Shown: positions 25,579 through 57,334 of the stretch, in pieces
Numbering within the stretch: position 1 is the stretch's first letter
How the letters are laid out: each line of letters starts with the position of its first letter
DNA from: Bradyrhizobium oligotrophicum S58
GTDB taxonomy: Bacteria > Pseudomonadota > Alphaproteobacteria > Rhizobiales > Xanthobacteraceae
Assembly (NCBI RefSeq): GCF_000344805.1
Contig: NC_020453.1
Span: 124,001 to 188,000 of the forward strand
DNA: 64,000 nt
Direction of reading: 5' to 3'
Position numbers and translations under genes: made by a program
The notes under the pieces: model-generated
What the model was told of the DNA's origin: nothing
What the model saw: only the letters and a program-made list of their open reading frames with translations
Database searches by the model: none

Positions 25579-25718
25579 CCTGCGCATCGGACTCTCCTGA
25601 CTGCCTTGGATTGGCGAACTACGCCTGTGATGGTAGCGCGTAGCGGCATCCTTTGTCATCGATGAGCCGCTCGCGCACTCAGCGCAAAAGGTGACAGCCC
25701 GCATTGATGCTTGCCACA

Positions 25719-25798
25719 GTCATTGCGAGGAGCGAAGCGACGAAGCGATCCAGGGCGACACCCGCAGCCCTGGATTGCTTCGCTGCGCTCGCAATGAC
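25719..25798. repeat. GTCATTGCGAGGAG-type palindromic repeat, copy 2
   Basis: Ends GTCATTGCGAG and CTCGCAATGAC are exact inverted complements around AGCGAAGCGACGAAGCGATC and a matching inner arm TGGATTGCTTCGCT, so the whole 80 bp can form one long hairpin. Confidence 0.8.
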
Positions 25799-25974
25799 GG
25801 CGGAGCTATCAGCATGCCTCTCATGCATCGTCTGCCCGTCGTGCCAGTCTGTCGCACCATCGGGCCTTGCGCCGTCGGGCAAATCAGCTGCACATTTCCG
25901 CGCGTCCCTGCTGCCGCATGAGGGGCGTTTCGCGACCGTCACGGATCGTTGGCAGTGGGATGCGATGGGCGTGT

Positions 25975-26325
25975 GTCGACGCAGCGTGAGCTAATCGCGC
26001 GGACGAACGGCGATGCACGCACGGTCAAGTCGCGCGGTCCTGATATCCCGATGCTGATATCAACTCATGGCGGAGCTTTCGCTTTGCGTGGGGATGGTGG
26101 CCAGCAAGCCGGCGCACCAGGGAGAACGCGAAGCAGCCGTTAAAACCACTCGCGCAGGGAAGGCCGGATGCTCCGGCGCGTACCTGTGGTTCCTGCCGCC
26201 AGCATTTCTTCCGCTGGCGGGCCATGGGTGCGGTCGGCACCCGGCCTTCCCTGCGCCCTCATGATGTCGAGGGCGGGACGAGAAGCACAACTCGGGCGCG
26301 GGACGCGCCGCGAGGATGAGGATGC
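25975..26325. repeat. Structured dispersed repeat, copy A
   Basis: About 300 bp similar to 56762-57085. The core folds as: outer stem 26152-26167 with 26241-26256 (16 bp perfect), middle helix 26182-26190 with 26221-26229 (9 bp with G-U pairs), inner stem 26196-26203 with 26213-26220 (8 bp perfect) and a 9-nt loop. Compared with copy B the outer stem has a G:C for T:A change and the inner stem an A:T for T:A change, both compensated. No convincing protein is encoded; short frames read through it. Confidence 0.75.
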
Positions 26326-26389
26326 TCGCCCGCAAGCCGCGAATGATCAGGACGCTGGAAATGTCGACAAGCTGTGACGCACGCTCGGT

Positions 26390-26754: not shown

Positions 26755-26841
<87 letters not shown>

Positions 26842-52954: not shown

Positions 52955-55276
52955 CTAAACACGAATCCGAACGCGTTCTTGAACTCTTTGATAGAGTTGA
53001 ATGTTCGCTCGCGATCGCAACTCGATGGCAAGGGCGAATCGTTGATCCTCTGAAGACCAGCCACTTTCACAACGGACCGCGAGGAAATATCTATCTCCAT
53101 AGCGTTGCGAGTTGGTGGTCATCGAGAATGTTGCGCACTGAAGCGTGCCCCGTTCCCGACGCTGTGCGCCGGGCTTCAAGTCACATTTGAGACTCTCTTT
53201 GATTCGGAAGACGCGGCCTTCGTCAGCCTCCCATTTGCGGAAAGCGTCGAACACCTCGCTCGCACTGGCGCCCCGTATCAAGTGAAATCCCATCTTGAGG
53301 CCGGCGTAGTCGAGCCGCGTGTGCTTCACCGGCGGGTCGAAACTGAGCGCCACCCGAATCTGCCGAGCTCCTTTAGTTTGGAACACATCGGGGATCGGCA
53401 CTTCGTAGACCGCAAACTTGTCTGCCGACAAAACGTCTTCTGCGATAAGAACAACTCGGTTGTCCTCGGATTCTAGCGCCTTAGCGACATCAGGCAGGCC
53501 GTACCCAAGGAGATTGAAGATCGCGTCGTCATCTCCGAAACTTTGATCAATGGCCGTCGGATGCTCGGCGCTTAGGGCAAGTAGCGCTCTGACCAGATTT
53601 GCTGACGCGTTGGGAAGGCTTTCGAACAGTAATGCGGCCTTGTAGGCGACCAGTGGCGCAGCAAATGACGTCCCCGAGTAGTAACTAAGCAACTGCTGTA
53701 GATATTCGTGATGCGTAGAAAGAATGCCTGCATTGGCCCGCGCAGACCCGCTTTGCAGTCGTTGTGTCGGCCCATCATAAACGGCAGTTCCGCCAAAGTC
53801 GACGAGGTCGGGCTTGAGCACTTTGTTAGTGCCTGGACCGGCGCGGGTGAACGGGGAGGGCTGAAATGTCTGCGCGATGGATCGCACGCCGACGTTTTCT
53901 GCATCAATAGTCGAAAGGCCGTTTGAATGCGCGATGGAACCAACGGTCAGAACATTGACTGCGCTTGCAGGCTCAAGAATACGATTGGCTTCGTCAAGGA
54001 GGAACCTCGGATAAGCGGTGACGATACCGTCTCCAAGGGACGCAAGGTAGGCTGAAGACGCGTTACCTGCCGAGACGACGATCACAATGTCTAGCTCTCG
54101 GGCCAAAGCATCTAGGGTCGCAGCCCAAGCGCTGGGCTTGTAGCCCGCGGACCTTTTGATGTCGCCCAAAGAGATGTTTATTACTCGGCAGCCAAACTCC
54201 GCAGTCAGCTTACGGAAAGAATTTTCCATTTGAGTAGGGACGAGTTCCTCGTCGTCGAAACGCCCCGCCGCATTTACAACCCGAGCGCTTGCTACGCGAA
54301 ATTTAGCTCGGAACGGAGTTTCGGATAAACGCTGGCGAACATCTCCGAAAATGGCAATACCCGAGACCGATGTGCCGTGTCCCTTTTCGTCGCTGTCCCC
54401 CAAGCTTGCAGGTTCACCAAACGCGGCGGCTAACGAGCCAACTATTAGTGGGTGTGCGGAGGTAAGCCCGCTATCAATTATGCCGATGGTCGGTGCCCCA
54501 TTCTCGGGAGGCAGAATCTCAGGCAAGTCGCCGAGCTCGATATTGCGTGCAGGAAGCTCCGCCCAATCCGGTGTCGGGGGACGATCAATGGTGGCAATCT
54601 CCGGCAACTCCAATAGCTGACGAACGGCGGTGCCTGTCCCGTGCATCCGCATAAGCAGTGCGGACTTACCTCGATAGGAGCTGACAACAACGCCTTCAAA
54701 TTGCTCTAGCACCGTGGTCACGCGGTGCACGAACAAGTCCGCGTTCAAACCGGAAACGGGCCAGAGCTCCACGTCATAGAATTCCGCCGGTTCGGGAATG
54801 AGTTCAGGAGTTGCATAGCCTTCCTCCTTTAGTACTGGGCCGATTCGATCGGTTGCGTCGATTGGTCGAACAGCCTCGATCGCTTCGATTAACGCAGCAT
54901 ACGGCTGGCTCTTTTGATTTTCTGGTTTTTCGCCATTATATGCGGTGACCTTTTGCTGAAATGCAGTTAGTTCCACATCGTCTGCAAAGAGTATCAATGT
55001 TTGGCCCGGCCCATTCGCCAGGACTGTCAAACCAATTTTAGCCCACTCGTCTTCGCTTATGTTTCCCGACGTCTCAACTTTCAAAATGAGCGCCGGGTCA
55101 ATGTCGCCAATTTTAGGCTTGGCTTGATGTTCCTGGAGAACTTCTTGAACTTCGGCCTGTATTTTTGCGCCATGGCTTTTGGCCTCTCGACCTGATGGTT
55201 GGCCAAAGCCAGGTCGCTTTCGGCGATCGAGTTCGCCTTCGACACGCTGTAGTGGCAAGTGTTGATATGTTGCCAT
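52955..55276 (-). CDS. ietS: Subtilisin-like S8 peptidase, IetS-type defence protein
   Basis: Serine protease of 773 residues with the full triad: Asp268 (IGIIDSGL), His300 (GHGTSVSGI), Ser537 (GTSFAAP), and oxyanion Asn405 (SAGNAS). No signal peptide, so it is cytosolic. The first about 250 residues are an unrecognised domain and the last about 170 may be a beta-rich module. It follows the AAA+ gene by 29 bp. Such ATPase/subtilisin pairs are the IetAS type, first found as a plasmid-stability pair in Agrobacterium and later as phage defence. Lower GC than the flanks. Confidence 0.8.
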   Translation of the reverse strand: MATYQHLPLQRVEGELDRRKRPGFGQPSGREAKSHGAKIQAEVQEVLQEHQAKPKIGDIDPALILKVETSGNISEDEWAKIGLTVLANGPGQTLILFADDVELTAFQQKVTAYNGEKPENQKSQPYAALIEAIEAVRPIDATDRIGPVLKEEGYATPELIPEPAEFYDVELWPVSGLNADLFVHRVTTVLEQFEGVVVSSYRGKSALLMRMHGTGTAVRQLLELPEIATIDRPPTPDWAELPARNIELGDLPEILPPENGAPTIGIIDSGLTSAHPLIVGSLAAAFGEPASLGDSDEKGHGTSVSGIAIFGDVRQRLSETPFRAKFRVASARVVNAAGRFDDEELVPTQMENSFRKLTAEFGCRVINISLGDIKRSAGYKPSAWAATLDALARELDIVIVVSAGNASSAYLASLGDGIVTAYPRFLLDEANRILEPASAVNVLTVGSIAHSNGLSTIDAENVGVRSIAQTFQPSPFTRAGPGTNKVLKPDLVDFGGTAVYDGPTQRLQSGSARANAGILSTHHEYLQQLLSYYSGTSFAAPLVAYKAALLFESLPNASANLVRALLALSAEHPTAIDQSFGDDDAIFNLLGYGLPDVAKALESEDNRVVLIAEDVLSADKFAVYEVPIPDVFQTKGARQIRVALSFDPPVKHTRLDYAGLKMGFHLIRGASASEVFDAFRKWEADEGRVFRIKESLKCDLKPGAQRRERGTLQCATFSMTTNSQRYGDRYFLAVRCESGWSSEDQRFALAIELRSRANIQLYQRVQERVRIRV

Positions 55277-55305
55277 CGTGAAAAGAACCCAAGGAAAAAG
55301 GCAGA

Positions 55306-56169
55306 TCAGCGTTGGGGGAGACGCGCTCTGATGTCCTTGCGCCGAAGTCCCTCTCGGATTGACGAGTCGAACTCAGCCTCAAGGAGAGACCGTGATTTTT
55401 TCAAAATCGATCGTTTAATTGCATTATCGCAAATTCGCTCAACGTCCGCGAAGGACATGCCTTTTAGTCGCGTTGCTTTCTCTGCAAGAGAGAAGGGCGC
55501 GGGGAAATTCTTTAGTTTGATCTCGAAGAGCCGCCGAATTTCGCGCTGAGACGGCAAGTCGAAAACCACGACCTCATCAAAACGTCGCCAGATAGCAGAG
55601 TCTAAGCTTTCTTCTAGATTGGTCGCGGCGACAAGAAATCCTTTCCCTTTGAAGCGATCGATTAGCATCAACAGGCTGTTGACCACTCGTCTCAGTTCAT
55701 TGTGCTCGGAGCTGTCAGCTCGGGCCCTCGCGAGCGCATCAAATTCATCTAAAAACAAAACACACGGCTGTTCAGCGGCGGTCTCGAATACCTTTCGTAT
55801 GTTTGTCGCAGTCTCACCGAGGAACGATGAAATGATTGCATCCAGCCGAGCCACGATAAGAGGTAAGCGGAGTTCGTGAGCAAACACCTCTGCAGTGAGA
55901 GTTTTCCCGCACCCCGGCGGGCCACAAAAGAGCAGCTTGGAGCGAATTGTTAGTCCATGTCTGCGCAGGAGGTCGGCCCCACGGAACTCTTCCATCAAGC
56001 CCAAGAACGTTCGTATGTTGTGGGGCGAGAGGACTAGCTGCTCCGGCGTTCGCTGCGGAGCTACAACTTCCACTAGATTCGAAAAAGCAGCGCTCTTGGC
56101 AAGTTTCAGCGGAATCAACGGGAGGCCAGATTCTATTGCCGTTACTGGCTTGCGCCGGGGAGACCTCAT
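55306..56169 (-). CDS. ietA: AAA+ ATPase, IetA-type defence protein
   Basis: AAA+ ATPase of 287 residues: Walker A GPPGCGKT (83-90), Walker B VLFLDEFDAL (137-146), sensor 1 AATN (181-184), Arg finger pair Arg195-Arg196, and a small C-terminal lid. The N-terminal about 60 residues are a helical domain that could recognise partners. Upstream of the S8 peptidase on the same strand; it likely controls the protease. Codon use is less GC-rich than the neighbours, consistent with horizontal gain. Confidence 0.8.
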   Translation of the reverse strand: MRSPRRKPVTAIESGLPLIPLKLAKSAAFSNLVEVVAPQRTPEQLVLSPHNIRTFLGLMEEFRGADLLRRHGLTIRSKLLFCGPPGCGKTLTAEVFAHELRLPLIVARLDAIISSFLGETATNIRKVFETAAEQPCVLFLDEFDALARARADSSEHNELRRVVNSLLMLIDRFKGKGFLVAATNLEESLDSAIWRRFDEVVVFDLPSQREIRRLFEIKLKNFPAPFSLAEKATRLKGMSFADVERICDNAIKRSILKKSRSLLEAEFDSSIREGLRRKDIRARLPQR

Positions 56170-56761
56170 ATGTGACCCGCTAAGTGTCCGATATTTGAGC
56201 GAAATTCGATGTCAAAGGTCTAGGCAAGTGCGTGCGGACGTTCGCCCGATTCCACGAGCAGCCAAGCCGAAACTGCGAAGACAGTAGGACACATTCGCGT
56301 GCGTCGCACTGGCGAACTTGGTTATCCAAAGACGATAGCGAGTTGACGAACAGCACTGTGTAACATTCCATAGACGAAGAAAAAATAGTGCTTTAGAATC
56401 AATGCGTAGATGGCTTGACGCTGCAATCCGTTCCTGCGCACCTGATAATAAAACGTCCACCGGGACTCAAATCGAGGCGCTTCGTACCCGCCAAACGGCA
56501 ATTCCGTAGGCGATGGCAGGTCGAATGTACGTTCGTTCCAAGGGATGCGGCACGGCGAGGGAATGTTGGCTGTATGGGTTCGCAGTTGCCAACGAACGAG
56601 ACATCGAATGCGCTGGTAAAGAAATTATCTTGCTATTTTTCCGAAACCATGATTATCTTCGCCCATCCCGCCTCGACGAGAGGGGCGTTGCGCGCGATCG
56701 TCACGACACGCGAGGCGGGGAGCGATGGCCGCGGTCTGCCGCAGCGTGTCTTCGGGCGCGC
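56170..56761. other. 592-bp right edge of the lower-GC island
   Basis: AT-richer stretch before the structured repeat. It should carry the ietA promoter. No supported gene; frames here are short with rare codons and no family features. Confidence 0.5.
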
Positions 56762-57085
56762 CGACGAACGGTTGGGCTGCGGACGTGAAGTCGCAGGGTC
56801 CTGATACCCCGACGCTGGTATCAACTCACGACGAAGCTTCGCTTCGCGTGGGGATGGTGGCCAACAAGCCCGGCGCGCCAGGGAGACTGCGTATAAGCGT
56901 TAAGACCGTCGCGCAGGGAATGCCGGATGATCGGCTTGACCTGTGGTACCTGCCGCCTGCATTTTTTTAGCAGGCGGGCCATGGGTGAGGCCTTCACCCG
57001 GCATTCCCTGCGCCCTCTCATCTTTCGGAGGGACATGGTCGATGCAGGACTCGGGCGAGACGCGCCGCGAGATCGCGAGGCTGTG
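56762..57085. repeat. Structured dispersed repeat, copy B
   Basis: Diverged copy of 25975-26325. Outer stem 56911-56926 with 56998-57013 (16 bp perfect), middle helix 56939-56947 with 56978-56986, inner stem 56953-56960 with 56970-56977 (8 bp perfect), loop with a T run. The stems stay perfect although the sequence differs from copy A. It borders the ietAS island. Confidence 0.75.
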
Positions 57086-57213: not shown

Positions 57214-57300
57214 GTCATGGCCGGGCTTGACCCGGCCATCCAGCTTCTTGGAAGAAGTCCATCGAAGGGGATGGATGCCCGGGTCAAACCCGGGCATGAC
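57214..57300. repeat. GTCATGGCCGGGCTTGAC-type palindromic repeat
   Basis: The left part GTCATGGCCGGGCTTGACCC and the right part GGGTCAAACCCGGGCATGAC are inverted near-complements around a central TTCTTGGAAGAA. It lies 34 bp beyond the gpmA stop and may end its transcript. Confidence 0.78.
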
Positions 57301-57334
57301 GAGCTGATGAACTCGCTTGGCTTGGCGCGTCGGA

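What the first reader, a model, noticed from the sequence alone, without database searches (positions are those of the whole stretch)
25975..26325. Two-copy structured element with compensatory base changes
A roughly 300-bp element occurs at 25975-26325 and 56762-57085. Its core folds into three stacked helices in both. The outer 16-bp stem differs between copies (AAGGCCGG/CCGGCCTT against AATGCCGG/CCGGCATT) and the inner 8-bp stem differs (CCGCCAGC/GCTGGCGG against CCGCCTGC/GCAGGCGG), yet both stay perfectly paired, while the middle helix is unchanged. This covariation implies selection on the fold, as RNA or as a hairpin in DNA. The flanking blocks (CGTGGGGATGGTGGCCA) are also conserved. It could be a repeated small RNA family or a non-autonomous mobile element.
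Basis: seen in the sequence. Interest (0 to 1): 0.78.

Follow-up and report, generated by a model that had tools for sequence, protein, structure and literature searches.

The report
Genome-wide repeat with conserved RNA-like fold
Two similar stretches in this Bradyrhizobium-like chromosome belong to a family of well over a hundred copies that keep the same elaborate single-strand fold, which suggests an undescribed structured RNA that sits at borders between changeable and stable DNA.

Summary
The two copies belong to a family of at least 127 copies in this genome (147 covariance-model matches, 20 of them antisense echoes), found in 23 of 24 other same-genus genomes and in 16 of 47 genera of the family, own genus included. 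The element is about 450 nt.

Over 197 copies and 36 core pairs, 99.2% of cells pair; G.U outnumbers A.C 744 to 19, so one strand's fold is kept. Between 56 orthologous copies in two species, paired sites differ by 2.4% and unpaired sites by 14.5%, with 22 compensated double changes: the fold is kept in place.

Copies border variable, AT-richer DNA on their 5' side and conserved DNA on their 3' side. In this genome other copies are depleted within 40 kb on the 5' side (14, against 64 on the 3' side).

No Rfam family and no paper found matches. Most likely it is a transcribed structured RNA element, anciently spread and now held in place. Transcription and function are untested.

The parts
25870..26330 (+). 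copy 1 of the element (approximate ends; 5' leader degenerate)
   Evidence: blastn and CM matches; ends by analogy with G003 copies and the consensus of 127 copies
25920..25927 (+). copy 1, 5' strand of proposed closing helix P1 (GAGGGGCG), would pair with CGCCCTC near 26254-26260
   Evidence: consensus fold of 197 copies; register not distinguishable from slid versions
25962..25968 (+). copy 1, 5' strand of long-range helix P2 (GCGATGG), pairs near 26146-26153 with a bulge
   Evidence: 99% paired in 197 copies and 98% in 133 further copies, slid at most 58%
26041..26062 (+). copy 1, hairpin P5 TGATATC...GATATCA (copy 2: TGATACC...GGTATCA), covarying
   Evidence: sequence; 5 pairs with double changes
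26149..26260 (+). copy 1 core: long hairpin with outer (P7), middle (P8) and inner (P9) helices
   Evidence: A1 and model R1
26291..26316 (+). copy 1, 3' tail hairpin CTCGGGCGC..GCGCCGCGAG
   Evidence: sequence; consensus folds
56625..57085 (+). copy 2 of the element (approximate ends)
56680..56687 (+). copy 2, 5' strand of proposed P1 (GAGGGGCG), would pair with CGCCCTC near 57011-57017
   Evidence: register not proven
56722..56728 (+). copy 2, 5' strand of P2 (GCGATGG), pairs with CCGTCGC at 56906-56912
   Evidence: sequence
56802..56823 (+). copy 2, hairpin P5 TGATACC...GGTATCA
56909..57017 (+). copy 2 core hairpin
57050..57080 (+). copy 2, 3' tail hairpin
   Evidence: sequence
52955..56169 (-). 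AT-rich stretch directly 5' of copy 2 carrying an IetS/IetA-like pair (subtilase + AAA ATPase); an example of the variable 5' side
   Evidence: GC 0.59 and 0.53 at 52-54 and 54-56 kb; Pfam and PADLOC matches

Best explanation
The two copies belong to an ancient, high-copy family of large structured elements of about 450 nt. Probably the element is transcribed and works as folded RNA at each locus.

Shown: the fold, its strand polarity, its conservation in place at orthologous sites of two species, the intergenic position, and the asymmetry of surroundings (variable AT-richer DNA on the 5' side, conserved DNA on the 3' side, one-sided depletion of other copies).

Inferred: that the single strand is RNA rather than DNA; that copies arose by an old non-autonomous spread; and that today each acts in cis as a polar boundary or insulator between the exchangeable 5' DNA and the stable 3' neighbour. 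My confidence is about 0.7 for RNA-level action and about 0.3 for the boundary role specifically.
For: Covariation with controls. In 133 further full-length copies (one of them, L258, a copy of the own genome) P2, P3, P5, P6, P7 and P9 keep 94-100% pairing and P8 91%, against at most 59% when slid. G.U 744 versus A.C 19, and 183 versus 17 when the four pairs with G.U as commonest type are left out; in ortholog pairs WC-GU 34 versus WC-AC 4, p 6e-7. Ortholog pairs: 97 of 4032 paired sites changed versus 297 of 2046 unpaired sites, 22 WC-WC double changes. Ortholog identity 87.9% versus paralog 74.2%, the ortholog ranking first in 42 of 56, which speaks against gene conversion. 124 of 127 cores lie outside predicted genes. 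The downstream gene is antiparallel in 77 of 124, p 0.009, as expected if something reads out of the 3' end. 3' flank conserved in 57 of 58 site pairs, 5' flank in 33 of 58 (3'-only 25 versus 5'-only 1, p 8e-7).
Against: No promoter of sigma-70 type was found by scan at copy 2; a promoter-like TTGACG is seen by eye only in G003 copies. No RNA data were available. No Rfam family matches. The nearest neighbours share no functional theme, which speaks against a specific regulatory target. One same-genus genome (G007) has no R1 match under stricter filters, so the element looks dispensable. Single-stranded DNA could in principle give the same G.T polarity. A fold predicted afresh on 122 diverse copies recovers P3-P7 and the tail hairpin but not P1, P2, P8 or P9, although P2, P8 and P9 pair well when tested by name. 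The register of P1 and P4 is not proven, and P10 as I specified it scored below its slid versions. The boundary role does not by itself explain a 40-kb one-sided depletion.
Confidence: 0.55

Rival explanations
1. A selfish non-autonomous mobile repeat: the fold is needed only when a copy moves, and settled copies decay.
For: Copy number differs widely between species (0 found in G007 to 129 in G081). In G003, 12 of 14 other copies compared are 88-97% identical to L394 over 299-525 b, two only 74%, which shows fairly recent spread. G012 has its own subfamily with a replaced terminal stem.
Against: 58 of 70 G081 copies examined (of 129) sit at sites shared with G000, and the 56 kept for the count have paired sites six-fold more conserved than unpaired ones. 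No significant terminal inverted repeats in 5 of 6 G003 copies tested; L393 was an exception. No target duplication seen by eye; no empty site was examined.
Confidence: 0.2
2. A DNA-level structure (cruciform, replication hairpin, or a palindrome kept perfect by template switching) with no RNA role.
For: Palindrome arms can be corrected by template switching (recalled). Orientation is loosely tied to replication: 77 of 127 leading in G000, origin inferred roughly from skew of the fetched loci; 38 of 54 in G154, assuming the origin at coordinate 0.
Against: Conserved G.U pairs (for example U.G at columns 42/76 in 187 of 197 copies) and 744 G.U to 19 A.C are not expected if both strands count or if arms are copied from each other. 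Long-range helices P2 and P3 and a branched domain are unlike simple DNA hairpins.
Confidence: 0.15
3. A chromosome-organising or recombination-directing site: something acts from the element over about 40 kb on its 5' side, like a polar hotspot.
For: One-sided depletion of other copies, more regular spacing than random in the three genomes tested, variable 5' flank, leading-strand tendency.
Against: Polarity is not significant in G019 (p 0.14), nor for divergent pairs within 40 kb in G154 (p 0.24), and G126 is too sparse. No protein partner is known. Genera with few copies (1-13 matches, with at most 19 candidates scored per genome) could hardly tile a chromosome.
Confidence: 0.2
4. A multicopy trans-acting small RNA.
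For: Many structured copies with conserved unpaired stretches.
Against: Redundancy of over 100 copies should relax selection on each one, but orthologous copies as a set are constrained.
Confidence: 0.1

Closest known systems
Br-REP1 and Br-REP2 of Bradyrhizobium japonicum USDA 110 (PMC5082802; abstract and search passages seen)
   Same: Repeated, intergenic, stem-forming elements in Bradyrhizobium and Rhodopseudomonas, found in 3'-UTRs.
   Different: Short palindromes (consensus 20 and about 40 nt) with different sequence; neither matches this window with up to 3 mismatches. [quoted passage not shown]
GTAG- and CGTC-tagged REPs (PMC3733652; search passages seen)
   Same: High-copy palindromic repeats, present in bradyrhizobia; CGTC-like repeats lie next to some of our copies (by eye).
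   Different: 20-40 bp, single hairpin, tagged ends; ours is about 450 nt with long-range helices and no such tag noticed.
MITEs and other non-autonomous elements (features recalled)
   Same: Non-coding, dispersed, lineage-specific amplification.
   Different: No consistent terminal inverted repeats; copies constrained in place.
HEARO/omega RNAs and other large ornate bacterial RNAs (recalled, not searched beyond Rfam)
   Same: Large, branched, sometimes multicopy structured RNAs linked to mobility.
   Different: No Rfam match and no constant neighbour gene among the nearest proteins.

Membership tests
Any Rfam 15 family | covariance-model score above the gathering cut-off | tested here: not met
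   Window: only a tRNA at 26758-26841 reaches its cut-off; copy 2: best is an unrelated miRNA model at 31.2 of 168 bits needed
Br-REP1 / Br-REP2 | published consensus | tested here: not met
   0 matches in the window with up to 3 mismatches
REP/BIME | 20-40 bp palindrome | tested here: not met
   about 450 nt, multi-domain
REP/BIME | cognate RAYT transposase | not tested
   no search for RAYT genes was made
MITE | terminal inverted repeats | tested here: not met
   5 of 6 G003 copies show no end-to-end complementarity beyond shuffles (31-133 of 300 reach it); L393 does, 0 of 300; 13 copies also inspected by eye
MITE | target-site duplication | tested here: inconclusive
   none seen by eye in 13 copies; no empty site examined
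integrase-borne island attachment site | integrase gene beside the site | tested here: not met
   11 PF00589 matches in the genome against 127 copies; 3 of 11 lie within 5 kb of a copy, 8 of 11 on the 5' side of their nearest copy
structured RNA family (general) | covariation beyond shuffles and slid controls | tested here: met
structured RNA family (general) | is transcribed | not testable with these tools
   no expression data available

The most novel reading that the evidence does not exclude
Each element owns a one-sided chromosomal territory. Something (RNA, a translocase or recombination machinery) acts from the folded element over about 40-60 kb in its 5' direction, and a second element there is poorly tolerated. 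This gives more regular, oriented spacing and a gene-turnover zone on that side. It would be a polar, RNA-based chromosome-domain element, a kind that I do not know of in bacteria.
Probability: 0.18. Interest if true: 0.95.

Novelty: new variant of a known kind. Interest (0 to 1): 0.76.

Why it matters
A structured element of about 450 nt in more than 120 copies, still under selection for its fold where it sits, is a large unannotated part of these soil and symbiont genomes, and it marks where gene content turns over. The one-sided avoidance between copies is a quantitative pattern that known repeat biology (two-sided immunity, recombination between repeats) does not obviously predict. It can be tested directly by deletion, inversion and RNA-seq in laboratory Bradyrhizobium strains.

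Tried and rejected
Homologous recombination between copies as the cause of regular spacing: it could remove close direct repeats (adjacent copies within 20 kb: 3 same, 13 opposite orientation in G000; 2 and 15 in G081). It cannot separate convergent from divergent inverted pairs, which differ 25 to 0 within 40 kb in G000. Rejected as the sole cause.

Integrase-borne islands: only 11 integrase matches in the genome, 3 of 11 within 5 kb of a copy. tRNA linkage: 6 tRNAs in 673 kb around 127 copies, no clustering. Shared neighbour function: no theme in the nearest upstream or downstream proteins, although response regulators are the commonest downstream family, 8 of 127 (gene calls by a home-made finder that misses atypical genes). 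Phage or plasmid carriage: no match in either collection; one IMG/VR contig matches a core pattern (not examined further). Promoter scan at copy 2: none. Literature: seven searches, one of them for stretches of the sequence itself, found no description; most subscription papers are not held.

Results against the reading: G019 shows avoidance on both sides without significant polarity (5' 3, 3' 7 within 60 kb, p 0.14), and G126 has no pairs within 60 kb. In G154 the lack of divergent pairs within 40 kb is not significant by itself (p 0.24). The fold of 122 diverse copies misses P1, P2, P8 and P9; P10 in the register I tested was worse than its slid versions, and P1 and P4 cannot be told from slid versions. 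One of six conserved convergent intervals changed by 71 kb between species. R1 searches score a limited number of candidates per genome (150, 93 or 19), so copy numbers are lower bounds.

Full report
1. Observation. The sequences at 25975-26325 and 56762-57085 contain the stems as described. A blastn search of the own genome (G000, one contig of 8,264,165 bases; window = 124001-188000) finds 40 distinct copies and one antisense echo. A covariance model R1 built from the 40 cores finds 147 matches in the own genome, 127 sense copies and 20 antisense echoes, with 150 candidates scored. On 39 distinct cores 99.1% of 1404 cells pair, 7 of 36 pairs show two-sided changes, none of 500 shuffles reaches any of the five measures, and sliding the partner strand lowers pairing to 39-49%.

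2. Full element. The conserved part of 127 aligned copies extends well upstream of the core and of the reported interval. In G003, 12 of 14 other copies compared are 88-97% identical to L394 over 299-525 b (two only 74%); 7 of the 12 matches start at -281 to -289 and 8 of the 12 end at +177 to +179 around the core start. RNAalifold on a random 90 of 197 aligned copies (127 own, 70 G081), scored on all 197, gives a branched 5' domain and long-range helices besides the core. In 133 further full-length copies (one of them, L258, from the own genome) P2 (98%), P3 (98%), P5 (94%), P6 (100%), P7 (100%), P8 (91%) and P9 (99%) pair, against at most 59% for slid versions. P1 and P4 cannot be told from slid versions, and P10 was mis-registered in that test. 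A fold predicted afresh on 122 non-redundant diverse copies recovers P3-P7 and the tail hairpin but not P1, P2, P8 or P9. The full-length model matches at least part of the element in all 162 loci L228-L389, five of which come from three other genera.

3. Which strand, and where selection acts. Over 197 copies and 36 core pairs: 6268 Watson-Crick, 744 G.U, 19 A.C and 40 other mismatches; leaving out the four pairs in which G.U is commonest, 183 G.U and 17 A.C. G.U on the sense strand would be A.C on the other, so the sense strand's fold is the one kept. Of 70 G081 copies examined (of 129), 58 share a flank with an own copy in the same orientation, 2 match oddly and 10 not at all. Two of the 58 hit one own locus (L090), apparently a rearrangement with its breakpoint at the element, and were left out, leaving 56. 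The ortholog is the most similar own copy in 42 of 56, with median identity 87.9% against 74.2% for paralogs. In these pairs 97 of 4032 paired sites differ and 297 of 2046 unpaired sites differ; 22 changes are Watson-Crick to Watson-Crick doubles; single changes are 34 between Watson-Crick and G.U, 4 to A.C, 3 to other mismatches and 8 between G.U and mismatch (34 versus 4, p 6e-7). The fold is therefore maintained at fixed sites.

4. Surroundings. With a home-made gene finder, 124 of 127 cores lie outside predicted genes; the downstream gene is antiparallel in 77 of 124, and where both neighbours were called the upstream gene shows no bias, 55 to 48. The 3' flank matches in 57 of 58 site pairs, the 5' flank in 33 of 58. 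The alignment through the core stops between -260 and -365, at the element's 5' edge, in 39 of 58 pairs and runs on in 16. Three inserts examined hold ordinary-looking open frames. GC is 0.623 upstream and 0.664 downstream, lower upstream in 103 of 127, p 2e-12; G081: 54 of 68, p 4e-7. Copy 2 has an AT-rich stretch with an IetS/IetA-like pair just 5'. Of 20 G154 copies examined (of 54), five match an own copy's 3' flank in the same orientation (four at 81-87%, one at 72%) and none a 5' flank. The site of copy 1 is also filled in G081 and G114; 27 other orthologous loci of 29 examined have no R1 match in the held DNA.

5. Spacing. Gap variation is lower than random: CV 0.69 versus 0.99 in G000 (p 5e-5), 0.51 versus 0.93 in eight G081 contigs (none of 10,000 simulations) and 0.71 versus 0.97 in G154 (p 0.004). 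Much of this is one-sided. Within 40 kb G000 has 14 same-orientation, 25 convergent and 0 divergent pairs (strand-shuffle means 19.4, 9.8, 9.8), G081 has 10, 25 and 2 (means 18.7, 9.1, 9.1), and G154 has 1, 4 and 0 (divergent p 0.24, convergent p 0.016). Counted per element in G000, neighbours on the 5' side in 0-20, 20-40 and 40-60 kb are 3, 11 and 32, and on the 3' side 31, 33 and 42, about 39 expected. G154 gives 3 versus 13 within 60 kb (p 0.004). The 56 G012 copies listed (of 84 matches) give 7 convergent, 1 same and 1 divergent within 60 kb. G019 gives 3 versus 7 (p 0.14) and G126 none. G000 and G081 share sites and are not independent.

6. Distribution. 23 of 24 other same-genus genomes and 0 of 16 genomes from other families in the order match. 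Within the family 56 of 198 genomes in 16 of 47 genera (own genus included) match, with only 19 candidates scored each. No plasmid or phage record matches.

7. Interpretation. A large, sense-strand, branched fold conserved at fixed sites is best read as a functional RNA element that spread long ago. Its per-locus function is unknown. The asymmetric surroundings make a polar boundary between changeable and stable DNA the most likely role, at low confidence. The one-sided depletion of other copies is the most surprising result and is not explained by recombination between repeats, which treats convergent and divergent pairs alike.

8. Novelty. No Rfam match, no match to Br-REP1 or Br-REP2, and no description found in seven paper searches. 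Earlier genome papers may have noted such repeats without giving sequence; one mentions an undescribed larger repeat (PMC5082802, passages seen).

Noticed in passing
window 52955-56169 (-): Subtilase and AAA ATPase pair matching PADLOC IetS and IetA models, in an AT-rich stretch directly 5' of copy 2: a probable anti-phage system.
   Followed up: partly
window 25715-25810 and 57215-57305: Other dispersed palindromic repeats (GTCATTGCGAG.. and GTCATGGCCGGGCTTGACCCGGCC types, by eye) close to both copies; similar repeats flank some copies in G012 and G003.
   Followed up: no
L090 (G000) versus L168 and L185 (G081): The own locus combines the 5' flank of one G081 copy and the 3' flank of another, a rearrangement with its breakpoint at the element.
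   Followed up: no
G012 loci L230, L233, L236, L239, L242, L245, L248, L251, L254, L257: Subfamily whose terminal stem is a different sequence but still a hairpin; several G012 contigs begin at copies, as expected for closely similar repeats.
   Followed up: partly
L390-L404 (G003): Several copies begin with TTCnTATTTTCCGAATTnTC, followed in L394 and L402 by TCTTGACG, promoter-like by eye.
   Followed up: no
G000 integrase matches: 8 of 11 PF00589 matches lie on the 5' side of their nearest element copy, too few to judge.
   Followed up: no
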